Shown here one piece after another: positions 2,631-13,813 of a stretch of 14,086 nucleotides of DNA. A program made the translations under genes and the position numbers. This DNA comes from Azonexus sp. (lineage in GTDB: Bacteria > Pseudomonadota > Gammaproteobacteria > Burkholderiales > Rhodocyclaceae), in assembly GCA_023150195.1 (NCBI GenBank), contig JAKLLI010000019.1, positions 1 to 14,086 on the forward strand, read 5' to 3'. Position 1 is the first letter of the stretch; every line of letters starts with the position of its first letter. The notes below the pieces were generated by a model. That model made no database searches. It saw only the letters and a program-made list of their open reading frames with translations, and was not told where the DNA came from.

Positions 2631-3074
2631 TTAGCGGTAAACCAGGACCGGAATTTTGGAGTGGGTCAGCACCTTGTTGGTTTCACTGCCCAGCAAAATG
2701 CTGCTGATGCCGCGTCGACCGTGGGAAGCCATGAAAATCAGGTCGCAACCGGATTTTTCCGCGGCTTCGATGATGGCTTCGTGCGGGAGGTCGCTGACTG
2801 CGCTGAGCGTGGCGCAGGGCACCCCTTCGTCCTGGCAAAGTTTGGCGACCTCGGCAAGAAACTCGCTGGCCTGTTTTTCGGTCATTTCAGCGAATTGCTC
2901 CGGGCTGCTTGGATCGAGCAGCGCGCCTTCGCCAAAATAGGCAATCGGGTATTCCGGCTTGGCGTAAAACGCCGTGACACGGGCACCGGCTTCGCGCGCG
3001 AAGGAGATGGCGCGGCGCATGGTGGAACGGGAGAGCTCCGAGCCGTCGGTCGGAACGAGAATATGCTTGAACAT
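2631..3074 (-). CDS. Universal stress protein (UspA family)
   Basis: A single-domain universal stress protein of 147 residues, the usual length. It is probably a cytoplasmic, dimeric, nucleotide-binding protein made under energy or oxygen stress. The N-terminus MFKHILVPTDGSELS is characteristic, with the adenine-contacting Asp in VPTDGS. Near the C-terminus the ATP-binding signature is present as A-SH-G-x9-G-S (ASHGRRGISSILLGS), so this should be the ATP-binding subclass; the first G of the consensus is A, a common variant. The start has a good Shine-Dalgarno GGAG eight bases upstream on the minus strand. It converges on the exported-protein gene with only 6 nt between stop codons and is divergent from phaC. 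USPs are often under FNR/Anr control in proteobacteria, but only a weak half-matching box is seen upstream here. Confidence 0.95.
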   Translation of the reverse strand: MFKHILVPTDGSELSRSTMRRAISFAREAGARVTAFYAKPEYPIAYFGEGALLDPSSPEQFAEMTEKQASEFLAEVAKLCQDEGVPCATLSAVSDLPHEAIIEAAEKSGCDLIFMASHGRRGISSILLGSETNKVLTHSKIPVLVYR

Positions 3075-3250: not shown

Positions 3251-4999
3251 ATGTCTGCGAGTGGTTCAGGACAGCATGGCAGCGTCGATATCAGCAGTTT
3301 GAGTCCCGCCGAGTCGGTGGGGCGTGCCGTCAGCAAGGCACTCGACCCCTATGGCATGACCGGGTCGTTGCTCAATGCCCAGATGGCCTGGTGGATGCAT
3401 CCACTGGAGTTGAGTCGGGCCGTCAATGCCTTGTCCGGCGACGTCATTCGCCTGCAGTCGCATGTGATGCGGCGGGCGATGGGGATTCCATCGACTGACG
3501 TCGTACTTCCGCATGCCGACGATGCGCGTTTTGCCGATCCGGCGTGGACGACCTCCGCCAGCTGGGACATTCTCAAGGAATCCTATCTGGCGCTGACGCA
3601 CCGCCTCGAAGACATGTTGTTCGAAACCCCCGGCCTTTCCGACAAGGAGCGTCGTCGTTCGGCCTTCTGGCTACGCAACTGGTTGAACATGATGGCGCCG
3701 ACCAATTTCTTCTGGACCAACCCGGCGGCGATGGCACGTTGCGTGGATACCCAGGGGGAAAGCCTGCGTCAGGGCATGGAAAATTTCGTTCGCGACGTTA
3801 AGGCCAAGAACATCCTGATGGTCGAGCAGGATGCCTTTACGGTGGGCAAGGATCTGGCCACGACGCCGGGCAAGGTGGTTTTTCGCAACCGCCTGGTGGA
3901 ACTGATTCATTACACGCCGACCACCCCCAAAGTGCGGGCGATGCCCATCGTGATGATCACGCCGTGGATCAACAAGTTCTACATTCTTGACCTGACGGCC
4001 AAGAAAAGCATGGTCAAGTATCTGACTGATCAGGGGTTTTCCGTGTTCATCACGAGCTGGAAGAATCCCGGTGCCGACATGAGCGAGCTGCGTTTCGACG
4101 ATTACCTGTTAGAGGGCGTCAACGAAGTGGTGCGGGTGGCGACCGATTTCTGCAAGGTGCCGCAGGTGCATCTGGTCGGTTACTGCATCGGCGGGACGCT
4201 GGTGTCGACTTACATGGCGTGGGCCAACCGGCATTTCGCCGCCGACCAGATGCCGGTCGCGCACTGGACCTTGTTCACCACGCTCACCGATTTTTCCCAT
4301 CCGGGCGACATCGACGTCTTCATCGACGAATCCTGCATTGATGCCATTGACGAGTCGATGGCGCAGAAGGGTTTTCTGGATGGCGCCGAAATGGCGACCT
4401 CCTTCCGCATGCTGCGCTCCAATACCCTCATCTGGCATTACTGGGTGCACAGCTATCTGTTGGGGGATCCCCTGCTGCCTTTCGATGTCCTGTTCTGGAA
4501 CATGGATACCACGCGCATGCCGCATGCCATGCACAGTTTTTACCTGCGCGAGATGTATCTGCACAACAATCTGGTCAAGCGCGATCATCTCAAGCTGGCT
4601 GGCGAATCCATCGATCTCGACCGCATTGTGCAGCCGCTCTACGCCGTGACCGCCGAGGATGATCACATCGCCCCGTGGAAGCAGTGCTATCGCATCCGCA
4701 AATATGTGAATGTGAAGGCGCCGGTGCGCTTCGCGCTCTCGTCGTCCGGCCATATTTTGGGTATCGTCAATCCGCCGGTGAATCCGCCCAAGCGAACGTA
4801 CCGGGTGGCGGATGCCGAGCGCAACGAACATTGGGAACAATGGCACGAGCGCACCGAACCGCAATCCGGCACTTGGTGGGAAGACTGGACCCGCTGGCTC
4901 AACGAGCGCACCGGGGAACTGGTCGATGCCTATCCCACAAGCCGTCGCAACTATCTTTCGCTCGGCGATGCGCCGGGGACTTACGTGCTGGAAAAATGA
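3251..4999 (+). CDS. phaC: Class I poly(3-hydroxyalkanoate) synthase PhaC
   Basis: Polymerises (R)-3-hydroxyacyl-CoA into PHA on the surface of storage granules. The protein has 582 residues, close to class I enzymes such as the 589-residue Cupriavidus PhaC, with an N-terminal PhaC_N region followed by an alpha/beta-hydrolase-like catalytic domain. The lipase-like box is GYCIGG with nucleophile C312. The rest of the catalytic triad is D471 in EDDHIAPW and H501 in SSGHILGIVNPP. Other family stretches are TPWINKFYILDL, FITSWKNPG and WHYWVHSYLLGDP. The ATG at 3251 has GGAG at 3241-3244. No phaA, phaB or ordinary phasin gene is adjacent. The 3' end overlaps the MCP-tip-like gene by 4 nt (ATGA), so the two are likely translated together. 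Class I is favoured over class II by length and sequence; substrate chain length cannot be read from the sequence. Confidence 0.96.
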   Translation: MSASGSGQHGSVDISSLSPAESVGRAVSKALDPYGMTGSLLNAQMAWWMHPLELSRAVNALSGDVIRLQSHVMRRAMGIPSTDVVLPHADDARFADPAWTTSASWDILKESYLALTHRLEDMLFETPGLSDKERRRSAFWLRNWLNMMAPTNFFWTNPAAMARCVDTQGESLRQGMENFVRDVKAKNILMVEQDAFTVGKDLATTPGKVVFRNRLVELIHYTPTTPKVRAMPIVMITPWINKFYILDLTAKKSMVKYLTDQGFSVFITSWKNPGADMSELRFDDYLLEGVNEVVRVATDFCKVPQVHLVGYCIGGTLVSTYMAWANRHFAADQMPVAHWTLFTTLTDFSHPGDIDVFIDESCIDAIDESMAQKGFLDGAEMATSFRMLRSNTLIWHYWVHSYLLGDPLLPFDVLFWNMDTTRMPHAMHSFYLREMYLHNNLVKRDHLKLAGESIDLDRIVQPLYAVTAEDDHIAPWKQCYRIRKYVNVKAPVRFALSSSGHILGIVNPPVNPPKRTYRVADAERNEHWEQWHERTEPQSGTWWEDWTRWLNERTGELVDAYPTSRRNYLSLGDAPGTYVLEK

Positions 5000-5619
5000 C
5001 CATGACGAACGCGTTGACCGTAGCTGGCAAACCTCAGGCGGGGGCCGACCTGTTGCGCATTGTGCGCATCAACGAAGAAATCAAGGCCGTGGTCGGGGTG
5101 GCCTTCAAGATCAATATCATGGCCTTGAATGCCATTTTTCTGGCCAAGCGGGCTGGAACCACGGCCCTGGGTTTTGGCGTGCTGTCCAATGAGTTGCGGG
5201 TCTTCTCCCAGGACCTGCGCACCTGCATGGGCTCGCTCACCGATCTGATCCACCGCTGCGTCAATGAGGTGTCGCTGGTGTTGCAGGATATCCGCCACAC
5301 CAAGTTGTTGCGGGACGCGGTGGATTTGTCGGCCAACCCGGCTGGACAGGCGATTTTGCAGCGTCGTGAAGCCGGTAATGCCGAGCACCGTTCGCGGCTG
5401 GGCGCCTTGCGTCGCCAGTTGCAGCGCTCGCTGGAGGATGCTTTCCGGCTGGTCGAACTCGGTGGCGTGCTGGCCAAGTCGGCCAAGATCGAGGCCGCTT
5501 ACGGCCAGGCATTCGCGGGTCCGCTGGCGCAAGTGTCGGGCGAATTCGACGGCATCGTGGAAGAGATCCGTAATTCCCTGCAGGCTTTGCGCCGCTCAGC
5601 CTTTTTTTCCGATCAATAA
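4996..5619 (+). CDS. Soluble protein with degenerate MCP signalling-tip (chemotaxis-like)
   Basis: A 207-residue, largely helical protein with no signal peptide or membrane segment. Residues about 28-75 align by eye with the conserved hairpin tip of methyl-accepting chemotaxis proteins. VAFKINIMALNA matches IAFQTNxLALNA, KRAG matches ARAG, and GFGVLSNELRVFS matches GFAVVAxEVRxLA. The usual acidic residues (xEAARAGE) and the Arg of GRGF are absent here, so CheA/CheW contacts may be altered. The remainder (about 95-200) is predicted coiled coil or amphipathic helix. There is no sensory domain. The start at 4996 overlaps the phaC stop (ATGA) and has GGAA just upstream; the ATG at 5002 is an alternative. 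It is followed after 27 nt by the ODP-type di-iron gene, suggesting that the ODP is its sensor partner. An alternative reading is a PHA-granule-associated helical protein, given the phaC coupling. Confidence 0.7.
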   Translation: MTMTNALTVAGKPQAGADLLRIVRINEEIKAVVGVAFKINIMALNAIFLAKRAGTTALGFGVLSNELRVFSQDLRTCMGSLTDLIHRCVNEVSLVLQDIRHTKLLRDAVDLSANPAGQAILQRREAGNAEHRSRLGALRRQLQRSLEDAFRLVELGGVLAKSAKIEAAYGQAFAGPLAQVSGEFDGIVEEIRNSLQALRRSAFFSDQ

Positions 5620-5646
5620 AACCAATCGTTTCGAAGGGGACGTCGC

Positions 5647-6387
5647 GTGAAGAAAACGAATGTCATTTATCAGGATGGCGATCACAAATGGGTGGCCATT
5701 GTTCGCGATCCCGAGCGTCCGGGCCATCTGGTGGATACCAATGAATATCTGGTGACGCATGGCGGGGCGGGCATTCTGCTCGATCCGGGCGGGGCGGAGG
5801 TTTTTCCGGCGGTGTTCTCGGCCTTGTCTTCCGAATTCGATCCAACGGCGCTCAGCGCCGTGTTTGCTTCGCATCAGGACCCGGATATCTGTTCTTCGCT
5901 GGCGCTGTGGCTGGAATTCAATCCGGGCATGCGTTGCTACGTCAGCTGGCTATGGAGCAGTTTCGTGCCACATTTCGGGGGAACGGCGGAAACCTTCGCC
6001 TGCATCCCCGACGAAGGCATGGAAATCTCCCTGAATGGCCTGCAGTTGCAGGCGGTGCCGGCGCATTATCTGCATTCTTCAGGCAATTTCCATTTGTACG
6101 ACCGCCAGGCCAAGATTCTCTTCTCGGGGGATGTGGGCGCCGCCTTGTTGCCGGCCGACCAGGACGGCCTGTTTGTCGAGAATTTCGATGCGCACATCAA
6201 GCATGCGGAAGGCTTCCATCGGCGCTGGATGGGTTCCAACGAAGCCAAGCGGCGCTGGTGCGAGCGCGTGGCGCAAATGGACATCGACATGCTCTGCCCA
6301 CAGCATGGCGCGATTTACCGGGGAGCCGATGTGCATCGCTTCATCAGCTGGTTCGATGATTTGCAGGTGGGCATCGTCGGCAGTTGA
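5647..6387 (+). CDS. ODP-type oxygen-binding di-iron protein (metallo-beta-lactamase fold)
   Basis: A 246-residue protein of the flavodiiron-like metallo-beta-lactamase family that lacks the flavodoxin domain. Stand-alone members include ODP, an oxygen/iron sensor described for Treponema denticola chemotaxis. Likely metal ligands by position are H76, D78 and D80 in SHQDPDI, H143 in HYLHSSGNFH, D162 in LFSGDVGA, and H220 in LCPQHGAIYRG. The canonical HxExDH motif here reads HxDxD-Ile, so the sixth-position His is missing, which favours O2 binding or sensing over NO/O2 reduction or hydrolysis. The start is GTG at 5647 with AGGGGA at 5635-5640. It lies 27 nt after the MCP-tip-like gene and is probably co-transcribed with it and with phaC. 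The name ODP-like is from recognition of the motif spacing; a plain MBL hydrolase is less likely because the ligand pattern is of the flavodiiron type. Confidence 0.8.
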   Translation: MKKTNVIYQDGDHKWVAIVRDPERPGHLVDTNEYLVTHGGAGILLDPGGAEVFPAVFSALSSEFDPTALSAVFASHQDPDICSSLALWLEFNPGMRCYVSWLWSSFVPHFGGTAETFACIPDEGMEISLNGLQLQAVPAHYLHSSGNFHLYDRQAKILFSGDVGAALLPADQDGLFVENFDAHIKHAEGFHRRWMGSNEAKRRWCERVAQMDIDMLCPQHGAIYRGADVHRFISWFDDLQVGIVGS

Positions 6388-6399
6388 TCCGCGTGCTTG

Positions 6400-6440
6400 T
6401 TGATGCCGATCAAGGTTTGGGCGCAGCGGGAAACCGACAA
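6400..6440 (+). promoter_or_regulatory. Perfect FNR/Dnr box with class II-like -10, upstream of HHE operon
   Basis: TTGATGCCGATCAA at 6400-6413 is a perfect TTGAT-N4-ATCAA box. GACAAT at 6435-6440 matches TATAAT at 4 of 6. Placing it at -12 to -7 gives a start near 6447 and a box centre at about -40.5, close to the -41.5 of class II FNR-family promoters. The spacing to the HHE ATG at 6474 leaves a short leader. FNR, Anr and the NO-responsive Dnr/Nnr share this motif, so the sequence alone cannot say which regulator acts. The NO/O2-related genes downstream fit either. The site supports 6474, not an upstream TTG, as the HHE start. Confidence 0.72.
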
Positions 6441-6473: not shown

Positions 6474-6917
6474 ATGAGCCTTCGCGATTTACTGACCGAA
6501 AACCACCGCCATTGCGATGACCTGTTTGCCGAGGCCGAGATGGCCGCGGGCAAGGGGAGGGTTGATACCGCACTGGCGGCTTTCAGCGGCTTCGCCGAGG
6601 CGACACTCGCCCATTTTTCGGCAGAAGAACTCACCCTGTTTCCGGCCTTCGAGGCCCAGACCGGCATGACCATGGGGCCCACCCAGGTCATGCGCATGGA
6701 ACATGAGCAGATGCGCAGCCTCATCCAGGATGCGGTCGACGCGCTCAAACAGGGCAATACCGAGGATTTTCTCGGCATCAGCGAAACCTTGCTGATCATG
6801 ATGCAGCAGCACAACATGAAGGAAGAAAACGTGCTCTACCCGATGTGCGATCAGCATTTGAGCGCCGAGGTGAGCAGTTTGCTGGCGCGCATCGGTTCGG
6901 CGCTGCATCAGGCATGA
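6474..6917 (+). CDS. Hemerythrin HHE-domain protein
   Basis: A 147-residue four-helix-bundle hemerythrin-like protein, expected to bind a non-heme di-iron centre and to bind O2 or handle NO and iron stress in the cytoplasm. Likely ligands are H11 or H13 (ENHRHCDD), H47 and E51 (HFSAE), H77 (RMEHEQM), and H113 and E117 (HNMKEENVLYP). This is the normal HHE layout, with the H-x3-E motif occurring twice. The ATG at 6474 is used; it has a weak GGA at 6464-6466. An in-frame TTG at 6384 would translate through the FNR box and the inverted repeat and is unlikely. The stop overlaps the DUF2249 start (ATGA). HHE plus DUF2249 is a recurrent pair near NO-metabolism genes, consistent with the FNR/Dnr box upstream. 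Confidence 0.92.
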   Translation: MSLRDLLTENHRHCDDLFAEAEMAAGKGRVDTALAAFSGFAEATLAHFSAEELTLFPAFEAQTGMTMGPTQVMRMEHEQMRSLIQDAVDALKQGNTEDFLGISETLLIMMQQHNMKEENVLYPMCDQHLSAEVSSLLARIGSALHQA

Positions 6918-7141
6918 GCCGGCCGCCGCCCGAGCGTGTGCTCGACGCCCGCTATCTCGAGCCACCGGGCCCCTTTGTTCAGACCATGGAGATGCTCGAC
7001 ACGCTGGCGCCCGGCGAGCAGATGTTGCTGCTGCTCTATCGCGAGCCGCACCCCCTCTACCGCGTGTTGCAGCAAAACGGGCATCGCTGGTCGGTTGAAC
7101 TGCAGCCTGACGGGACTTTTGAAATCCTGATTACCTGCTGA
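6914..7141 (+). CDS. DUF2249 (TusA-like fold) small protein
   Basis: A small cytoplasmic protein of 75 residues made of one DUF2249 domain. Family hallmarks are VLDARYLEPPGPFVQTMEML near the N-terminus, then TLAPGEQMLLL, REPHPLYRVL (the conserved PHPLY stretch) and a final beta-strand FEILITC. The fold is related to the sulfur-carrier-like TusA family but lacks its CPxP cysteine motif; the only Cys is the last residue. The biochemical role of DUF2249 is unknown. Such genes are often found next to hemerythrins and NO reductase or NnrS-like genes. The start overlaps the HHE stop by 4 nt, so translation is probably coupled. Confidence 0.9.
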   Translation: MSRPPPERVLDARYLEPPGPFVQTMEMLDTLAPGEQMLLLLYREPHPLYRVLQQNGHRWSVELQPDGTFEILITC

Positions 7142-7151
7142 GGGTGCGTCA

Positions 7152-8438
7152 GTGCAGGCACTGCTTTCCTTTGACAAGAGTCCGCCGCTGTCTGCGCCCT
7201 TGCGCTTTTTTCTGACGGCTCCCGTGTTTGCCATGCTGGCTGGCATCTTGTTGCTGGTCGATGGCCCTGAGGTCTTGGCCTCGCGCTGGTCGCCGCTGAC
7301 GCTGGCGGCCACCCATCTGTTCACGCTGGGCTTCATGTTGCAGGTGATGCTGGGGGCGCTGATTCAAGTTTTGCCTGTCGTGGCCGGTGCCAATCTGGCA
7401 CACCCGGCCCGAATTGCGAGCGGCGTGCACGCCACATTGACGCTGGGTACGCTGGTGCTGGTTTGGGCTTTCCTCTTTCCTGCCCCGGGTTTGCTGCACC
7501 TTGCCGCCACCTTGCTGGGTTTGGCGATCCTGGTTTTTCTGCTGACCGCCGGGCGGGCGGTGTTTGCCGTGCCCACGACCAGTCCCACCATTCGCGGTTT
7601 GAAACTGGCCTTTGCCGGCCTGGCGATGACCGCCGGCCTCGGTGTGTTGCTGGCGCTGGCCTTGGGCAGTGGCTGGTCCTTGTCCTTGCTGGATTGGGTT
7701 GACCTGCATGCCACCTGGGGCTTGGGCGGCTGGAGTGCCGTCCTGCTCATGACACTCGCTTATGTGGTGGTGCCCATGTTCCAGCTGACGCCGGCATATC
7801 GGGTGCGGGCCAGCGTCTGGATGCCAGTCAGTCTGGCGCTCAGTGCTGCCGTGTGGACGCTGGCGGTGTTGGCGCAGTTGCCCTGGCTAAGCGGGCTGGC
7901 GGCCTGGGTGATGGCTTTGGCCGGCCTCGCCTTTGCCGGGATGACGCTCGTCCTGCAACGGCAACGCCGGCGGGCGCGGCCCGATGCCACGCTGGCTTAC
8001 TGGCAAGTGGCCTGCATGGCCTCGGCGGTGGGGCTGGTTTTGTGGCGGCTTTCCGGCTTTGCGCTTGTCGAGGACTGGTCGCCGCTTCCCTTGTTGATTG
8101 GCGTACTGATCATGATGGGCGGCTACGGCGGATTCATCACCGGCATGCTCTACAAGATCGTGCCTTTTCTTGGCTGGCTGCACCTGCAAAACCTCGCCGG
8201 ACCGGGAAAGCCAGTGCCGGCGATGAACAAGTTGCTGAGTGAAGCCGCGATGCGCGGGCAACAGCGCCTGTTTTTTGCCGCTTTTGCCCTGTTGACCGCC
8301 GCTTGTGTCTGGCCCGAATGGCTTGCTCGTCCCGCAGGTTTGGCATTTCTGCTCGCCCATGCCGCGCTGCTGGTCAATCTGCTGAAGGCAGTGCGTGCCT
8401 ATCGCGCATGCCGTGCGTCACTGGGGCAGGCTGCATGA
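7152..8438 (+). CDS. Polytopic membrane protein, NnrS / heme-copper-oxidase subunit I-like
   Basis: An inner-membrane protein of 428 residues with about 12 predicted transmembrane helices (roughly 17-37, 51-80, 93-111, 113-140, 149-172, 187-212, 222-242, 247-268, 281-302, 312-340, 372-388 and 394-414). Histidines in or near helices resemble heme or metal ligands of NnrS and CcoN-like proteins: H55 in ATHLFTLGFMLQVMLGA, H186 in DLHATWGLGGW, and H344 in FLGWLHL. It is too short and lacks the full ligand set for a working oxidase. The GTG start at 7152 has GAGGG at 7140-7144. The gene lies 10 nt after DUF2249 and overlaps SirB2 by 4 nt. Genes of this type recur beside HHE and DUF2249 genes in betaproteobacteria. 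A role in NO or oxygen stress is inferred from context only, and the family assignment is tentative. Confidence 0.7.
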   Translation: MQALLSFDKSPPLSAPLRFFLTAPVFAMLAGILLLVDGPEVLASRWSPLTLAATHLFTLGFMLQVMLGALIQVLPVVAGANLAHPARIASGVHATLTLGTLVLVWAFLFPAPGLLHLAATLLGLAILVFLLTAGRAVFAVPTTSPTIRGLKLAFAGLAMTAGLGVLLALALGSGWSLSLLDWVDLHATWGLGGWSAVLLMTLAYVVVPMFQLTPAYRVRASVWMPVSLALSAAVWTLAVLAQLPWLSGLAAWVMALAGLAFAGMTLVLQRQRRRARPDATLAYWQVACMASAVGLVLWRLSGFALVEDWSPLPLLIGVLIMMGGYGGFITGMLYKIVPFLGWLHLQNLAGPGKPVPAMNKLLSEAAMRGQQRLFFAAFALLTAACVWPEWLARPAGLAFLLAHAALLVNLLKAVRAYRACRASLGQAA

Positions 8439-8812
8439 ACTATCTTGTGCTCAAGCATCTGCATGTGACCTGCGTGGTCTTGAGCGGCACCGGCTTTGCC
8501 TTGCGGGCGTGGTGGATGTGGCGAGCTTCGCCCGCGCTCCAGCATCCGCTGGCACGCCGCCTGCCGCATGTTATCGATAGCCTGTTGCTGGGCAGCGCGC
8601 TGTGGATGGCCTGGGAAAGCCAGCAGTTTCCCTTTGTCCAAAGCTGGCTGACGGCCAAGTTCTTTGGCCTGCTCGGCTACATCGTGCTCGGCAGTCTGGC
8701 GCTTAAACGCGCACCCGACCGGGCGGCCAGGGGGCGCTATGCCCTGGCGGCGATGCTGGCGTATGGCTATATCGTTAGCGTGGCCTTGAGCCGCCAGCCC
8801 TGGCCTTTCTGA
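8435..8812 (+). CDS. SirB2-family membrane protein
   Basis: A 125-residue inner-membrane protein with four predicted helices, the full length for SirB2. Typical features are LVLKHLHVTCVVLSGTGFALR at the N-terminus, RRLPHVIDSLLLGSALWMA, SWLTAKFFGLLGYIVLGSLALKR, and a last helix ending VALSRQPWPF. The molecular function of SirB2 is unknown; the name comes from a Salmonella locus once linked to invasion-gene regulation. The start overlaps the previous stop (ATGA at 8435-8438), placing it last in the HHE operon. Its stop codon directly abuts the stop of the convergent regulator gene, with no spacer. Confidence 0.9.
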   Translation: MNYLVLKHLHVTCVVLSGTGFALRAWWMWRASPALQHPLARRLPHVIDSLLLGSALWMAWESQQFPFVQSWLTAKFFGLLGYIVLGSLALKRAPDRAARGRYALAAMLAYGYIVSVALSRQPWPF

Positions 8813-10837
8813 TTACATTTTGCCCAGTTTGCGATACAGCGTATTGCGGCTGATACCCAACTGGCGAGCGGCTGCCGAAATGTTGCCGCCAGCGGCTTCC
8901 AGCGTGCGCAAGGCCGCCTGCCGGCTGATTTCCTCCAGACTGCCGGCGGGGCCACCTTCCAGCGGGGCTGCCGCCCACGGATCGTGTCCCTGAACGGAGA
9001 AGGCTTCGGTCGACGGCAGCGGCACTTCAAAAAGCTCTTCCGGCAGGTGCAATTCGGTGATCAGGCTTTCGTCGTCGTCGAGCAGGGCGATGGCGACGCG
9101 AATCACGTTGTGCAATTGCCGGATGTTGCCGGGCCAGCGATAGGCCTCGATGGCCTGCAGCGCGCCTTCGGAGAAACGCACCGGCAAGTCGCGGTTGAGC
9201 GCCTCGGCCGCCGCCAGTTTGTTGACCAGGGCGCGCAGATCACTACGTTCGCGCAAGGGCGGCAAGGTGACGGCGAGGCCGTTGAGGCGATAGTACAAAT
9301 CCTCGCGGAAGGTGCCACGAGCGACTTCCTCGCGCAGCCGTCGGTGGGTGGCGCAGACCAGAGAAATATCAACCTGAATCGCCCGCGTACTGCCCAGCGG
9401 GGTCACGCTGCGTTCCTGCAGTACCCGCAGCAGGCGGGCCTGCAGATTGAGCGGCATGTCGCCGATTTCATCGAGAAACAGGGTGCCGCCGTGGGCTTGC
9501 TGAATTTTCCCCGGCGCCCCTTCTTTGCGTGCACCGGTAAAGGCGCCGCCCTGATAACCGAACAACTCTGACTCGATCAGGGTTTCCGGAATCGAGGCGC
9601 AGTTGAGCGCGACGAAGGGAGCGTCATGGCGGTTGCCGCTGTTGTGATAAGCCTTGGCGAACATTTCCTTGCCGGCCCCGGATTCGCCCTGAATCATGAT
9701 CGGGATGTCGCGGTCGAGGATACGCCGGGCACGATCGATGGCCATTTGCAGTCGGCTGTCACCGGTGTTGAGGGTATCCAGGGTGATGGCGCGCCGGCTG
9801 GGGGCGCTGCTGGGTGCAGCTTTGGGTGTGGCGCGCGGTGCTGGTTCTTCGTACACCCGGCCACTGAGTTGCGGATTGGGCAGGTTGCCGCGCAGTTGCA
9901 TGCAACGTTTGCGGCCGTTGATCTGGCATTCCACAAACCCTTGGGGATTGCTGCGCTGCCGGTCGATCAGGGCGGCCAGATGGCTTTCGAAAACCATGGA
10001 AAAGTCGCGGTTGACCGCATCTGCCCGGCGAATGCCCAGCCAGTCCAGACAATTGCGGTTGATGGCCAGCACCTGGCCATCGGGGGAAATCGCCGCCATG
10101 CCTTCCTTGGGGCTGCCCAGCCCATTCGGATGTTCGTGAATGCAGACCAGGATGTCGCGGGCGTGGACCAACTCGAAGAGTCGTTTTTCGATGATGGCAG
10201 AGGAAAATCGCGCGAGGCCAAGCGTATGTCGTTGCTGACTGCGATAGTCGCCGGAAATGTCGAGGACGCCGATCAGGCGCCGGTCCGGCCCGAAAATCGG
10301 ACTGGCGCAGCAACTCAGAAAACCGTTGTTTTCCAGAAAATGCTCGCCGCCCAGCACGGCCACCGCAGATTCCTCGGAGAGTGCGGTTCCGATGGCATTG
10401 GTGCCGCGCTGGGTTTCATCCCAGGAGGCGCCCGCCGCGAGGGCGATACGGTCGGCACGCTTGACGAAGTCCGGGTCACCCACGGTGTCCAGCAAGAGGC
10501 CGTTGGCGTCGGCCAGAATGACCATGCTGCCGGAGGCGCGAATTTCCTCGTACACATGCTCCATGATCGGTCGCCCCTGGCTGAGCAGGCTGCGATTGCG
10601 ATCCTGCTCGGTTTTCAGCTCATGGCGGTCCAGCGGTTGTTCGATCGGACTCAGGCCGCATTCCTGCAGGCCGAAGCGGCGGCAGCGTTCCCAGGAGCGA
10701 ATGATCAGCGGATCAAGTAGCCCATCCGGCAATTCGCCACGGTCAAAAAAGACCTCGCGGGCCTGTGTCAATTGCTGGCCGTGCAGCTCGGCCATGGTCT
10801 GGATGATTCCCATCTCTCCTCCGGTTGTCTCGGACAT
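8813..10837 (-). CDS. Sigma-54-dependent activator, AcoR/BmoR type (GAF-PAS-AAA-Fis HTH)
   Basis: A bacterial enhancer-binding protein of 674 residues. Residues about 105-220 form an AcoR-type GAF sensor (GASWDETQRGTNAIGTAL, EHFLENNGFLSCCASPIFG, LIGVLDISG). A PAS-like segment follows at about 245-290 (AAISPDGQVLAINRN). The AAA+ domain has Walker A GESGAGKE (384-391), the sigma-54 contact loop GAFTGA (431-436), Walker B GTLFLDEIGD (451-460) and GNIRQL (570-575). A Fis-type helix-turn-helix closes the protein (about 640-672, GNISAAARQLGISRNTLYRKL). Relatives respond to acetoin, alcohols or aldehydes, which suits the divergent alcohol-oxidation accessory operon carrying a sigma-54 promoter. The start is uncertain: the ATG at 10837 gives the longest product but has a weak ribosome site; an ATG at 10813 has GGAGG placed very close, and one at 10795 is also possible. 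Confidence 0.93.
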   Translation of the reverse strand: MSETTGGEMGIIQTMAELHGQQLTQAREVFFDRGELPDGLLDPLIIRSWERCRRFGLQECGLSPIEQPLDRHELKTEQDRNRSLLSQGRPIMEHVYEEIRASGSMVILADANGLLLDTVGDPDFVKRADRIALAAGASWDETQRGTNAIGTALSEESAVAVLGGEHFLENNGFLSCCASPIFGPDRRLIGVLDISGDYRSQQRHTLGLARFSSAIIEKRLFELVHARDILVCIHEHPNGLGSPKEGMAAISPDGQVLAINRNCLDWLGIRRADAVNRDFSMVFESHLAALIDRQRSNPQGFVECQINGRKRCMQLRGNLPNPQLSGRVYEEPAPRATPKAAPSSAPSRRAITLDTLNTGDSRLQMAIDRARRILDRDIPIMIQGESGAGKEMFAKAYHNSGNRHDAPFVALNCASIPETLIESELFGYQGGAFTGARKEGAPGKIQQAHGGTLFLDEIGDMPLNLQARLLRVLQERSVTPLGSTRAIQVDISLVCATHRRLREEVARGTFREDLYYRLNGLAVTLPPLRERSDLRALVNKLAAAEALNRDLPVRFSEGALQAIEAYRWPGNIRQLHNVIRVAIALLDDDESLITELHLPEELFEVPLPSTEAFSVQGHDPWAAAPLEGGPAGSLEEISRQAALRTLEAAGGNISAAARQLGISRNTLYRKLGKM

Positions 10838-10888
10838 GCTTTTTTTCTTTGTAGTGTTTCATAACGTAGCACCTGCCCTTTTTCTAAG

Positions 10889-10931
10889 CAACGCGTTGAA
10901 CAGTGTGCAGCGTTTTTGTCAGCAAATGCTG
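10889..10931. promoter_or_regulatory. Candidate upstream activator sites for the sigma-54 operon
   Basis: Two palindromic elements lie in the divergent spacer. CAACGCGTTG (10889-10898) is a perfect 10-bp palindrome about 90 bp upstream of the -24 element. CAGCA-AA-TGCTG (10920-10931) has perfect 5-bp arms. TTGAACA at 10896-10902 overlaps the first. The distance to the promoter is right for enhancer binding by the divergently encoded activator, and the first palindrome also lies near a possible promoter of the activator itself. Which, if either, is bound is inference. Confidence 0.35.
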
Positions 10932-10986
10932 TGCCAGTTCCCCTGTGTTGGTTAAAAAAGGCGCGAAAACGGGTTGGTTTGTTCAC

Positions 10987-11002
10987 TGGCATGAGGATTG
11001 CA
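10987..11002 (+). promoter_or_regulatory. Sigma-54 (-24/-12) promoter of the pedF operon
   Basis: TGGCATGAGGATTGCA matches the RpoN consensus TGGCACG-N4-TTGCW with one mismatch (T for C). The invariant GG (10988-10989) and GC (11000-11001) are separated by exactly 10 bp. Transcription would begin about 12 bases after the GC, near 11013, giving a leader of about 40 nt before the GTG start at 11052. The divergently encoded gene is a sigma-54 activator, which independently supports the call. Confidence 0.85.
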
Positions 11003-11051
11003 AACGTTTCGGCCACAAAAGTCGCAATCCGTATTCATCAAAGGAGACAAA

Positions 11052-11480
11052 GTGAAATCCCTTACCCGCAAATTCGCCACCCTGGCCACCGTGCTCACCC
11101 TGGGTTCTGTCAGCGCCACCTTGTTCGCTCACGGCGATGTCGTGCCGCAGGCCGTGGATGTCACCGGACTCAAGCCGCTCGGCGAGCATTGGCGAGAAAG
11201 TAACCCCTATCGCAAGGACGCGCTGGCGATTCGCATCGGTGATTCTGCGTTCAATCAGAATTGTGCACGCTGTCATGGGCTGGGCGCCGTTTCCGGCGGG
11301 ATCGCGCCAGATCTGCGCTACCTGCCCCTGGGCGATGAAGGTGACGAAGTCTTTATGCAGCGCATCCGTAAAGGCGCGTTTCGCGATGGTCGCGTTTACA
11401 TGCCCCCGTTTGAAGGTACGCTGAGCCAGGAAGCCATGTGGTCGATTCGTGCCTGGCTGGAGACCGTCCATGAAGAATGA
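11052..11480 (+). CDS. pedF: Cytochrome c-550 PedF (quinoprotein alcohol dehydrogenase electron acceptor)
   Basis: A periplasmic monoheme c-type cytochrome of 142 residues, expected to take electrons from a PQQ-dependent alcohol dehydrogenase. A Sec signal peptide ends near residue 26 (LFA before HGDVVPQAVD). The heme-binding motif is CARCH (C71, C74, H75), and M117 in VYMPPFEG is the probable distal ligand. PedF-family stretches are HGDVVPQAVDVTGLKPLG, NPYRKDALAIRIG and ARCHGLGAVSGGIAPDLR. The GTG start at 11052 is chosen because GGAG lies at 11043-11046 and the product then starts with a proper signal peptide. An upstream in-frame ATG at 10998 falls inside the sigma-54 promoter and is not credible. 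It is the first gene of the operon and overlaps the next by 11 nt. Confidence 0.92.
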   Translation: MKSLTRKFATLATVLTLGSVSATLFAHGDVVPQAVDVTGLKPLGEHWRESNPYRKDALAIRIGDSAFNQNCARCHGLGAVSGGIAPDLRYLPLGDEGDEVFMQRIRKGAFRDGRVYMPPFEGTLSQEAMWSIRAWLETVHEE

Positions 11481-12315
11481 CCGTCGACTGTGGTTGAAGG
11501 GGCTGGCAGGGCTGCCGCTGGCGATGGCCCTGCCGGCCCGTGCCGATGCGCTGGAGGCCGTTCGCGAGAAGGGCCGGCTGCGCATTGCGGTCTACAACGA
11601 TTTTCCGCCGTATTCGATGGCGGGCGGCAAGGGCATTGACGCCGACATTGGTCGGGCGATTGCCGAGCGCATGGGTCTGGCTGCAGAAATTGTCGGTTTC
11701 AATGCCGATGAGGACATGAATGACGACCTGCGCAACATGGTCTGGAAGGGGCATTATCTGGGTACCCAGCCCGCCGACCTGATGTTGCATGTGCCCGTCG
11801 ACATCAATCTGGCCAAGAGCAACGACAAGGTGCGCATTTTCGGCGCCTACCATCGCGAAACCCTGGCGTTGGCGAGAAATCCCTCGCGGATCAATGCCTT
11901 GAGTGGTTCCGCCGCCGTCGCGCTGGAAATTTTCACGCGCGAAAAAGTGGGCGTGGAAACCGCCAGCCTGTCCGACTCTTTCCTGCTTTCCGTGCTCAAT
12001 GGCCGGCTGCGCGATAACGTGGTGCACTTCAAGACCGTCGCCGATGCCGCGCAAGGCCTCAAGGATGGGCAGGTCAGCGCCGTACTGGCGCCGCGTGCCG
12101 AACTGGAAGCCGCGCTCGCGGGCGCCAGCCAATTCCCCATCGAGCGTCCGCAACTGGCCGAACTGAAAATTGAAGGCTGGCCCTTGGGGATGGCGGTCAA
12201 GGTCGAAGAGATGGCCCTGGCCGAAGCGGTCACGCAAGCCTTGTCTACGCTCAAGGGCGATGGTTCGCTGGCCGCGATCTTCAAGCGCCATGGCATTTCC
12301 TTCCTGCCGGCATGA
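11470..12315 (+). CDS. Quinoprotein-associated periplasmic binding protein (MxaJ/XoxJ-like)
   Basis: A 281-residue protein of the bacterial solute-binding family 3, of the subgroup associated with quinoprotein dehydrogenases (MxaJ/XoxJ relatives) and not with an ABC transporter. No permease or ATPase gene is nearby. Core features are REKGRLRIAVYNDFPPYS, GGKGIDADIGRAIAERMGL, and a DVPLNLTK-like segment VPVDINLAKSNDKV. The signal sequence DRRLWLKGLAGLPLAMALPARA carries a twin-arginine-like RR-x-W-L-K motif, so Tat export is possible. The ATG at 11470 has GGAG at 11459-11462 and overlaps pedF by 11 nt. The exact role, perhaps assisting or activating the PQQ enzyme in the periplasm, is not settled for the family. 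Confidence 0.88.
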   Translation: MKNDRRLWLKGLAGLPLAMALPARADALEAVREKGRLRIAVYNDFPPYSMAGGKGIDADIGRAIAERMGLAAEIVGFNADEDMNDDLRNMVWKGHYLGTQPADLMLHVPVDINLAKSNDKVRIFGAYHRETLALARNPSRINALSGSAAVALEIFTREKVGVETASLSDSFLLSVLNGRLRDNVVHFKTVADAAQGLKDGQVSAVLAPRAELEAALAGASQFPIERPQLAELKIEGWPLGMAVKVEEMALAEAVTQALSTLKGDGSLAAIFKRHGISFLPA

Positions 12316-13256
12316 TGCGCCCCGTCATCACAACCCTCGCTGGCCTGGTGCTGCTCGGCTTGGCCGCCGGCGCCCAGGCCGGCGCGCTGGCCTATGTGCC
12401 GAATGAAAAATCGGCCTCGGTCAGCGTCATCGACACCGATAGCGATCAGGTGGCGGCCAGTTTTGCCTTGGGCAAACGGCCCCGCGGCATTGCCGTCGGT
12501 GAGGCGCATTTGTATTTAACCGATGCGCAAGGCAGCGCGCTGTTGATCGCCGAGCGCAAAAGTGGCCAACTGCTGCGTACCGTCAAATTGGGCGAGTCGC
12601 CGGAAGGTGTTTCACTCTCTGCCGATGGTCGCCTGCTGGCGGTGGCCATGGAGGATGACAACCTGGTCGTCTTGCTCTCGGCGCCGGAAGGTCGCGAGAT
12701 CGCCCGCATCAAGGTCCATGGCAAGAATCCGGAGCATGCGGTGTTCAGCCCCGATGGGCGCTGGCTTTACGTGAGTGCCGAAGAGGCCGAGCAACTGGAC
12801 GTGATCGATGTCGCGGCCAGGCGTCAGGTGGCGAGCATCGATGTGGGCAAGCGCCCCCGCGGTATCGCCTTCCTGCCCGATGGCAGTCGCGCCTACGTTG
12901 CCTGCGAAGTGGCGGGTAAGGTCTATGCGATCGATGTCGCCAGTCGCCAGGTGATTGCGGAAATTACGGCGGGTCAGTATCCAAACGGCCTGGCGGTCCA
13001 CCCGGATGGGCAGCAGGTTTTTGTCTCGAATGGACGTGATCCGTCGGTGATGGCGATCGATGTCGCCACGAACAGCGTGCGGGCGACGGTTGCGGTCGGA
13101 AAACGCCCCTGGAACATGGCCGTGACGCCGGATGGCAGCAAGCTTTACGTCGCCAATGGCCGTTCCGGCACGGTCTCGGTGATCGACACCGCCAGCATGC
13201 AAAAGCTGCGTGACGTGACGGTGGGTGAATTGCCTTGGGGGGTCAGCATTCGATGA
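12312..13256 (+). CDS. PQQ-catabolism-associated YVTN beta-propeller protein
   Basis: A periplasmic beta-propeller of 314 residues with a Sec signal peptide ending near residue 23 (AGAQA). Seven YVTN-type repeats of about 42 residues can be traced. Their hallmark pattern is (L/V)YVxN...VSVIDTx...V.A.I.VGKRPRGIA..PDG. Examples are KRPRGIAV, ESPEGVSLSADG, KNPEHAVFSPDG, KRPRGIAFLPDG, QYPNGLAVHPDG, KRPWNMAVTPDG and ELPWGVSI. Proteins of this kind recur in PQQ-dependent alcohol dehydrogenase loci, probably as a periplasmic scaffold, but the biochemical role is unknown. The start overlaps the preceding stop; ATG codons at 12312 and 12315 are both possible. Confidence 0.9.
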   Translation: MMRPVITTLAGLVLLGLAAGAQAGALAYVPNEKSASVSVIDTDSDQVAASFALGKRPRGIAVGEAHLYLTDAQGSALLIAERKSGQLLRTVKLGESPEGVSLSADGRLLAVAMEDDNLVVLLSAPEGREIARIKVHGKNPEHAVFSPDGRWLYVSAEEAEQLDVIDVAARRQVASIDVGKRPRGIAFLPDGSRAYVACEVAGKVYAIDVASRQVIAEITAGQYPNGLAVHPDGQQVFVSNGRDPSVMAIDVATNSVRATVAVGKRPWNMAVTPDGSKLYVANGRSGTVSVIDTASMQKLRDVTVGELPWGVSIR

Positions 13257-13813
13257 ACAGTGCGCGCTACACCTTTCCCGCCGTACTGCTGCACTGGCTG
13301 ATGGCCGGCCTGGTTTTGTACATGCTGTGGCTGGGCGTGACCATGGTTGACCTGCCCAAAGGGCCGGACCGAACGGCGGCCTACGGCCTGCACAAATCCT
13401 TCGGTCTACTGCTGCTGGGGCTGTTTTTTGTTCGTTTCGGCTGGCGTTTGCGGCATGCGCCGCCGCCCCTGAGTGGCACGGGCTGGGAGCGCAAGGTGGC
13501 GCATGCGACGCATCACGCGCTTTATCTCTTTCTGCTGCTGACACCGCTGGCCGGTTATCTCGCGTCCAGCTTTTCGACTTATCCGCTCAAGTTTTTCGGG
13601 CTGGATGTCATCAAGCTGGGTTGGCCTGATGAAGGCATTCAGGGCGGATTCAAGTTGATTCACCTCTACAGCGCGTGGATCGGCATGTTGCTGGTGGGCT
13701 TGCACTTTGCCGGCGCGATCAAAAACGCCCTGCGTCGCGATGGCAGTTTGCAGCGTATGTTGCCCTGTCGATGTGTTCAAAAATTGAACACCTGTACCGA
13801 CGTGGAGCAGTAG
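13253..13813 (+). CDS. Cytochrome b561 family protein
   Basis: A diheme inner-membrane b-type cytochrome of 186 residues with four transmembrane helices. Candidate heme ligands are H14 (VLLHWLMA), H47 (GLHKSFG), H84/H87/H88 (AHATHHALY), H137 (LIHLYSAW) and H151 (GLHFAGA). It likely exchanges electrons between quinol and periplasmic partners, here plausibly the PedF cytochrome or the quinoprotein system. The ATG at 13253 overlaps the propeller stop (ATGA). The usual family end, about DGSLQRMLP, is followed by an unusual 16-residue tail with three cysteines (CRCVQKLNTCTDVEQ), encoded partly by a 19-bp palindrome. It is the last gene before the terminator. Confidence 0.93.
   Translation: MNSARYTFPAVLLHWLMAGLVLYMLWLGVTMVDLPKGPDRTAAYGLHKSFGLLLLGLFFVRFGWRLRHAPPPLSGTGWERKVAHATHHALYLFLLLTPLAGYLASSFSTYPLKFFGLDVIKLGWPDEGIQGGFKLIHLYSAWIGMLLVGLHFAGAIKNALRRDGSLQRMLPCRCVQKLNTCTDVEQ
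13773..13791. repeat. 19-bp palindrome in the 3' end of cytochrome b561
   Basis: GTGTTCAA-AAA-TTGAACAC has perfect 8-bp arms around a 3-nt centre. It lies inside the coding sequence, in the part specifying the unusual C-terminal tail. It lacks a T-tract and is about 70 bases before the real terminator. The TTGAACA half-site also occurs at 10896-10902 in the regulatory region of the same operon. It may be a protein-binding site or a short RNA hairpin. Confidence 0.65.

What the first reader, a model, noticed from the sequence alone, without database searches (positions are those of the whole stretch)
4996..6387. A split O2 chemosensory module (MCP signalling tip plus ODP) attached to a PHA synthase gene
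A receptor-less MCP-tip-like protein gene is followed after 27 nt by an ODP-type di-iron MBL gene, and the pair is translationally coupled to phaC. Seen: the MCP-tip-like stretch, the flavodiiron-type ligand pattern, and the spacing. Known: in Treponema denticola an ODP di-iron protein serves as an O2/iron sensor for chemotaxis. Inference: the two proteins form an O2 sensor feeding a chemotaxis or other kinase array, or report on PHA synthesis or granules. I know of no described link between PHA synthase and such a module.
Basis: partly seen in the sequence, partly recalled or inferred. Interest (0 to 1): 0.72.

Follow-up and report, generated by a model that had tools for sequence, protein, structure and literature searches.

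The report
Two-gene oxygen sensor for chemotaxis
Next to a plastic-storage gene this bacterium carries a small two-gene unit, a cut-down chemotaxis receptor tip and an iron protein that probably senses oxygen; relatives suggest it belongs with swimming control rather than with storage.

Summary
4996-5619 encodes a 207-aa divergent MCP-tip protein (here mcpT); 5647-6387 encodes an ODP-family di-iron protein (E 8e-68 to a solved ODP). They are a conserved unit: ODP follows mcpT in 80 of 80 named and 40 of 41 unnamed loci, sets that share genomes. In other families of the class, 6 of 8 pairs lie by CheA. In loci without a phaC hit, 13 of 25 have a perfect sigma-28-like promoter upstream of mcpT. 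Best reading: a bipartite O2/redox input to CheA/CheW arrays, a kind described for Treponema denticola. The phaC link is real synteny but probably incidental: pair-less relatives keep phaC, in 5 of 24 with the hemerythrin gene 107-183 nt behind it, and the hemerythrin genes lie behind their own FNR/DNR-type box. Newer: mcpT is predicted as a single-chain four-helix bundle with probably two tips, like a fused receptor dimer. The E385-equivalent is never Glu in tip 1 (120 of 120) and usually Glu in the proposed tip 2 (117 of 120). Profile comparison did not confirm tip 2. No interaction was tested.

The parts
2631..3074 (-). universal stress protein gene, divergent neighbour of phaC (context)
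   Evidence: Pfam Usp 2.1e-30; usp divergent upstream in 57 of 64 named loci with at least 5.5 kb upstream
3251..4999 (+). phaC, class I-type PHA synthase (context; its stop codon overlaps the mcpT start)
   Evidence: PhaC_N 3.9e-59; TIGR01838 586.8 bits, below its cut-off of 622.65
4996..5619 (+). mcpT: MCP-tip protein without sensor domain, 207 aa
   Evidence: MCPsignal 4.2e-8; 41-row alignment A1; AF2 pLDDT 88.8, pTM 0.79
5104..5205 (+). tip hairpin 1 of mcpT (residues 37-70), clear MCP tip with the E385-equivalent replaced by Leu (L49)
   Evidence: hhalign 98.1%, E 6e-13 for residues 14-100
5248..5343 (+). residues 85-116 of mcpT, part of the predicted distal two-helix stalk; proposed ODP dock (inference)
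   Evidence: helix lengths in the model of L201; these residues face the gap in L078, which also lacks ODP
5443..5565 (+). probable second, more degenerate tip hairpin (residues 150-190), keeping the E385-equivalent (E166)
   Evidence: best PSSM register outside hairpin 1 among 157; predicted turn at 168-170; not found by hhalign
5647..6387 (+). ODP-family di-iron metallo-beta-lactamase-fold protein, 246 aa
   Evidence: PF19583 1.6e-76; PDB 6qrq 8e-68
6400..6413 (+). perfect FNR/DNR-type box TTGATGCCGATCAA, probable boundary to the next transcription unit
   Evidence: a site with at most 2 mismatches between odp and hhe in 60 of 60 named and 25 of 25 unnamed loci, expected 1.2 and 0.7
6474..6917 (+). 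hemerythrin HHE protein (neighbouring unit)
   Evidence: Pfam 7.8e-21
6914..7141 (+). DUF2249/TusA-like protein (neighbouring unit)
   Evidence: Pfam 1.4e-18
7152..8438 (+). hydrophobic protein that I read as NnrS-like (label recalled; no family match above cut-off)
   Evidence: no significant family; position conserved
8441..8812 (+). SirB2-like membrane protein
   Evidence: Pfam SirB 1.3e-38

Best explanation
mcpT and ODP form a bipartite, cytoplasmic O2 (or Fe/redox) input to a chemosensory CheA/CheW array. Inferred mechanism: ODP binds O2 at its di-iron site and changes how it contacts mcpT, perhaps at the distal two-helix stalk. mcpT is a single-chain four-helix bundle carrying probably two MCP-type tips, a stand-in for a receptor dimer without sensor or methylation helices. 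It inserts into or docks on receptor/CheA/CheW arrays and shifts kinase activity. Shown: the two proteins, the conserved pairing, the CheA-cluster context outside the family, and a sigma-28-like promoter in Zoogloea-type relatives. Inferred: complex formation, O2 as ligand of this ODP, array binding, direction of the response. In this genome and in most of the examined Rhodocyclales loci the pair sits behind phaC, here between phaC and an FNR/DNR-type hemerythrin unit, as a cassette in what looks like a low-oxygen gene island; any co-transcription with phaC would serve expression, not PHA chemistry (inference).
For: (1) ODP directly follows mcpT in 80 of 80 named and 40 of 41 unnamed loci; at least 15 of the 41 unnamed mcpT are also in the named set. 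(2) mcpT-linked ODPs form one group apart from 5 non-linked ODPs, support 97/94, although the tree program warned of long branches meeting there. (3) Of 8 pairs outside the family, 6 have CheA in the fetched stretch, as does L080 inside it; 6 of these 7 CheAs form one clade, L207 lies elsewhere on a long branch. (4) Sigma-28-like promoter TCAAG-N14-GCCGTTAA upstream of mcpT: 13 perfect of 25 loci without a phaC hit, expected 0.0; the unrefined consensus gave 17 of 121 at up to 2 mismatches, expected 1.0. Three such genomes hold 11 exact sites (control, pattern read backwards: 2); 3 are at mcpT and 7 of the other 8 precede signalling genes, one of them an MCP. (5) CheA in 40 of 40 mcpT+ versus 98 of 110 mcpT- genomes; one CheA class in 34 of 40 versus 38 of 110, Fisher 2.5e-8, phylogeny not controlled. 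(6) Precedent: T. denticola ODP is genetically coupled to an MCP homologue without TM and sensor modules that modulates CheA (PMC7666581, section 8 and passages).
Against: The E385-equivalent, a trimer-contact residue of canonical receptors (recalled), is absent in tip 1 in 120 of 120 readable family sequences. The Pfam score is below cut-off, and L203 gives no MCP match at all. In L205 and L232 (outside the family) and in the stretches of G098 and G042 inside it no che gene was found. In the window's own genome the pair is not near che genes, no sigma-28-like site with fewer than 3 mismatches lies near mcpT, and both CheA hits are of the other class (77% complete MAG). None of 94 loci with phaC has a perfect sigma-28-like site. 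No interaction was computed or measured.
Confidence: 0.7

Rival explanations
1. A PHA-linked module: mcpT is a granule-associated helical protein or reports PHA synthesis or redox state, and its place behind phaC reflects direct function with PHA synthase.
For: phaC lies within 2.5 kb upstream in 57 of 67 named loci with at least 4 kb of flank (the script printed 50 because distance 0 was left out, the 10 listed as without phaC are the rest) and overlaps mcpT in 11 of 67 loci.
Against: Of 24 pair-less genomes with an orthologous phaC, 5 have hhe directly behind phaC at 107-183 nt and 7 have fnr-hemN. The 8 pairs outside the family have no phaC hit and 6 lie by CheA. Zoogloea-type loci have the pair without phaC. 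A nitronate-monooxygenase gene separates phaC and mcpT in some loci.
Confidence: 0.06
2. A low-O2/NO stress enzyme unit: ODP acts as an oxygen or NO reductase or iron-handling enzyme and mcpT is its helical scaffold, with no chemotaxis role in this lineage.
For: Neighbours are hemerythrin, DUF2249 and NnrS-like genes behind an FNR/DNR-type box; the wider region in relatives has fnr, hemN and a cbb3 oxidase gene. ODP shares ligand motifs with flavodiiron proteins and matches them at E 8.5e-8.
Against: No flavodoxin domain was found (246 aa). The box separates hhe from ODP. Sigma-28-like promoter and CheA clusters in relatives. Most invariant columns of mcpT lie in tip 1.
Confidence: 0.15
3. mcpT is an array modulator or decoy rather than a sensor transducer: lacking E385 in one tip, it caps or loosens receptor arrays when ODP is in one state. 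(A variant of the best explanation; the odds overlap with it.)
For: E385-equivalent lost in tip 1 in 120 of 120 readable sequences. In T. denticola, loss of ODP changes CheA order in arrays (PMC7666581). The L078 variant keeps both tips without ODP and stalk.
Against: Nothing here separates this from ordinary signalling. L078 is one draft genome.
Confidence: 0.25

Closest known systems
T. denticola ODP (TDE2498) with the MCP homologue TDE2496 (Muok et al. 2019; the PNAS paper is not held, seen only through PMC7666581 section 8 and passages, and passages of PMC7319448 and PMC6978683)
   Same: ODP-family di-iron protein encoded with an MCP homologue lacking TM and sensor modules; input to CheA. 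PMC7319448 says that ODP genes in operons with MCP genes, in two orders, were already found in that work.
   Different: Here mcpT has probably two tips and a stalk and lacks E385 in tip 1; it lies by phaC and low-O2 genes in Rhodocyclales. Whether TDE2496 shares this build could not be tested (its sequence was not reached).
CetA/CetB bipartite aerotaxis receptors (PMC12442639, abstract and passages seen)
   Same: A small cytoplasmic sensor protein signals through a separate MCP.
   Different: CetB is a PAS/FAD protein and CetA is membrane-linked; here the sensor is a di-iron ODP and the MCP part has no sensor or separate membrane domain.
Hemerythrin-domain MCPs such as DcrH (passages of PMC13401364 seen)
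   Same: Di-iron O2 sensing for chemotaxis.
   Different: Sensor and MCP are one chain there, two genes and another fold here.

Membership tests
ODP family (PF19583) | profile match over the whole domain | tested here: met
   257 bits against cut-off 27.2, positions 1-194 of 194
ODP family (PF19583) | flavodiiron-type ligand pattern | tested here: met
   four motif patterns in 46, 46, 45 and 47 of 47 mcpT-linked ODPs; same motifs in the alignment to 6qrq. That these are the ligands is recalled.
ODP family (PF19583) | binds di-iron and O2 | not testable with these tools
   needs protein
MCP signalling domain (PF00015) | score over the curated cut-off | tested here: not met
   33.7 bits against 34.6, E 4.2e-8; L201 23.5 and L080 32.5 bits, L203 no match. 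I call it a divergent relative, not a standard member. The protein database lists PF00015 for the 120 homologues shown.
MCP signalling domain (PF00015) | tip hairpin homologous to MCP tips | tested here: met
   tip 1: hhalign 98.1%, E 6e-13; hmmsearch median 40.9 bits, 41 of 41 over 10 bits
MCP signalling domain (PF00015) | E385-type trimer-contact residue in the tip (role recalled) | tested here: not met
   tip 1: Leu, Val, Ala or Pro in 120 of 120; proposed tip 2 has Glu in 117 of 120; L147 unreadable
MCP signalling domain (PF00015) | second hairpin (tip 2) is also an MCP tip | tested here: inconclusive
   PSSM register best outside tip 1, 27-mer z 6.7; predicted turns coincide; but hhalign 0.1% and hmmsearch median only 3.9 bits, none over 10
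Bipartite ODP/MCP chemosensory pair | MCP-like gene and ODP gene adjacent and conserved | tested here: met
   80 of 80 and 40 of 41 loci; 8 of 8 outside the family
Bipartite ODP/MCP chemosensory pair | MCP partner modulates CheA | not testable with these tools
   only indirect: CheA clusters and CheA co-occurrence
Flagellar sigma-28 regulon | sigma-28-type promoter upstream | tested here: inconclusive
   13 perfect of 25 loci without a phaC hit; 0 of 94 loci with phaC; nothing under 3 mismatches near mcpT in the window

The most novel reading that the evidence does not exclude
mcpT is a natural single-chain MCP-tip dimer: two hairpins in one polypeptide, one with the canonical core but without E385, the other keeping that Glu, with a distal stalk to which ODP docks. 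It is a plug-in O2-sensing adaptor that needs no membrane receptor or methylation and moves as a two-gene cassette between chemosensory clusters and low-oxygen islands.
Probability: 0.35. Interest if true: 0.66.

Novelty: new variant of a known kind. Interest (0 to 1): 0.5.

Why it matters
The ODP-chemotaxis experiments described in the papers I could read are on a spirochaete. This gives free-living betaproteobacteria (Azospira, Dechloromonas, Zoogloea) in which to test how a soluble di-iron protein talks to a chemosensory array. If mcpT is a natural single-chain tip dimer it is also a minimal tool for receptor-CheA-CheW studies. It also weakens an attractive but unsupported claim of a PHA-chemotaxis link.

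Tried and rejected
PHA function: judged unlikely because of empty sites and CheA-cluster contexts. Second hairpin by profile methods: hhalign tip 1 versus tip 2 gives 0.5% and MCP profile versus tip 2 0.1%, so I keep the two-tip claim as probable only. Foldseek gave no match with E under 0.001; its list has MCP cytoplasmic structures (3zx6, 2ch7) only at ranks 25 and 32. VIA-align's best rows are designed single-chain four-helix bundles and say only that the topology fits; cytoplasmic MCP tips are not among its 50 listed rows. FNR-type box in the usp-phaC spacer: up to 1 mismatch in 18 of 44 loci (expected 0.25, loci partly from the same genomes), but the window's own spacer has 3 mismatches. 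Sigma-28-like site in the window: nothing under 3 mismatches near mcpT; 12 sites with up to 3 mismatches over the window against 6.0 expected. In the phylum sample (E at most 1e-16, at most 7 candidates scored per genome) one genome besides the window's had mcpT. Literature on an mcpT-ODP link with phaC: only looked for it, in the PMC CC library; 59 found no paper, and of the listings of 82 and 83 I opened only PMC12442639 and PMC13401364, neither of which showed such a link in the passages seen. Most subscription papers, and the PNAS paper with its supplement, are not held, so this shows little about print as a whole.
Full report
What is there. The window (contig 162 of a 77%-complete, 425-contig genome, G000) carries usp (2631-3074, minus), phaC (3251-4999), mcpT (4996-5619), ODP (5647-6387), then a hemerythrin HHE gene (6474-6917), DUF2249 (6914-7141), a hydrophobic protein that I read as NnrS-like (7152-8438; label recalled, no family hit) and a SirB2-like gene (8441-8812). 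Loci with close homologues are from Azonexus, Dechloromonas, Azospira, Azovibrio, Zoogloea, Propionivibrio and many unclassified MAGs, so the window is very probably from Rhodocyclales.

The ODP. It matches PF19583 over its whole length (E 1.6e-76) and two solved proteins named oxygen-binding diiron protein (6qrq, 6qnm; E 8e-68 and 5e-64; that one of them is from T. denticola is recalled). The four ligand-type motifs are kept in 45 to 47 of 47 linked ODPs.

A conserved pair. mcpT homologues are in 40 of 150 sampled family genomes, 26 of 68 genera (at most 20 candidates scored per genome). ODP follows directly in 80 of 80 named and 40 of 41 unnamed loci; at least 15 of the unnamed mcpT are also in the named set. 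The exception, L078 (G084, 79% complete), lacks ODP there and in the genome search, and its mcpT lacks the residues matching 85-116 of the window protein, in the stalk, while both tips stay intact. One draft genome cannot prove it, but it suggests that the stalk serves ODP. Linked ODPs form a group of their own (97/94) against five unlinked ODPs, with a long-branch warning.

The chemotaxis link. Outside the family, 7 of 369 sampled class genomes have a near full-length homologue (8 candidates scored per genome; I take the other, partial hits in long open frames for ordinary MCPs without examining each, and that list was cut) and one more came from the phylum sample (7 scored per genome). All 8 have ODP next to mcpT. 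Of these 8 loci, 6 have CheA in the fetched stretch: L201, L202, L203, L204 and L206 carry STAS, CheA, MCP and CheW genes upstream of mcpT (in L206 MCP genes, not CheW, come last), and L207 has a more divergent CheA just upstream of mcpT. L205 and L232 show no che gene. Inside the family, L080 has STAS-CheA-MCP-CheW-MCP-mcpT-ODP, with mcpT and ODP overlapping and then a gene that I read as a receiver domain, and L081 has an MCP just upstream at a contig start; the related stretches of G098 and G042 show no che gene. Six of the seven adjacent CheAs form one clade next to a CheA class of the family (unrooted). That class (best E under 1e-16) is in 34 of 40 mcpT+ and 38 of 110 mcpT- genomes; any CheA is in 40 of 40 and 98 of 110 (no correction for phylogeny). 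The window's own assembly shows only the other CheA class. Of 119 loci with enough upstream DNA, 25 have no phaC hit, and 13 of these have a perfect TCAAG-N14-GCCGTTAA element upstream of mcpT (expected 0.0); 0 of 94 loci with phaC have one. The 13 have 11 distinct spacers. The degenerate form was chosen after seeing hits to the plain consensus, which by itself gave 17 of 121 at up to 2 mismatches (expected 1.0). The spacing equals the published sigma-28 consensus TAAAGTTT-n11-GCCGATAA (PMC2859248, passages). Three such genomes hold 4, 3 and 4 exact sites (control, pattern read backwards: 1, 0 and 1), one at mcpT in each; of the other 8, 7 precede HD-GYP-like, HDOD, Cache-PAS, GGDEF or MCP genes and 1 an outer-membrane efflux gene.

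The PHA link. phaC is upstream within 2.5 kb in 57 of 67 named and 27 of 37 unnamed loci with at least 4 kb upstream (the printed 50 and 26 left out distance 0). I searched 35 of the 110 pair-less family genomes for phaC; 24 have one at 49% identity or more. There hhe follows phaC at 107-183 nt in 5, after a longer gap in 4 (a nitronate-monooxygenase gene in two), and fnr-hemN follows in 7; the other 8 show neither within the fetched stretch, some with sirB or another Crp-like gene. All 5 short spacers carry the FNR/DNR-type box with at most 2 mismatches. So phaC appears to belong to an older low-oxygen island, and the pair came or went as a cassette between phaC and the box. Between ODP and hhe the box (at most 2 mismatches) is present in 60 of 60 named and 25 of 25 unnamed loci, perfect here at 6400-6413. 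TTGATnnnnATCAA is the published FNR/DNR box, and nnrS is a reported target of such regulators (PMC1274295, passages). Hence the hemerythrin genes are probably a separate unit.

Known or new. ODP with a receptor-less MCP is known from T. denticola (PMC7666581, section 8 and passages), and ODP genes in operons with MCP genes, in two orders, were reported (PMC7319448, passages). I could not read the primary PNAS paper, so I cannot say whether Rhodocyclales were among them. Not met in what I read: the probable two-tip single-chain build, loss of E385 in tip 1, the cassette behaviour, the low-oxygen island, and the sigma-28-like promoter. I file it as a new variant of a known kind.

Noticed in passing
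window 6400-6413: Perfect FNR/DNR-type box in front of the hemerythrin-DUF2249-NnrS-like unit; a site with at most 2 mismatches in 60 of 60 named and 25 of 25 unnamed odp-hhe spacers, sets that share genomes.
   Followed up: yes
L078 (G084:C93) 1988-2588: Natural variant: mcpT of 162 aa without part of the stalk and with ODP missing, hhe next.
   Followed up: partly
L082 (G000:C294) 3962-4735: A second, unlinked ODP in the same genome, beside a type II/IV secretion ATPase gene with MshEN domain.
   Followed up: partly
L206 4427-4966: The ODP gene next to mcpT matches in two overlapping pieces and the called frame lacks the H-x-[DE]-x-D motif; possibly broken or misassembled.
   Followed up: no
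window 8813-13810: Sigma-54 regulator, PedF-type cytochrome c550, solute-binding protein, beta-propeller and cytochrome b561-like genes; seen as a block only in L042 and L043 among the unnamed loci.
   Followed up: no
usp-phaC spacer of relatives: FNR-type box with at most 1 mismatch in 18 of 44 loci, expected 0.25, not in the window: possible oxygen control of phaC in part of the family.
   Followed up: partly
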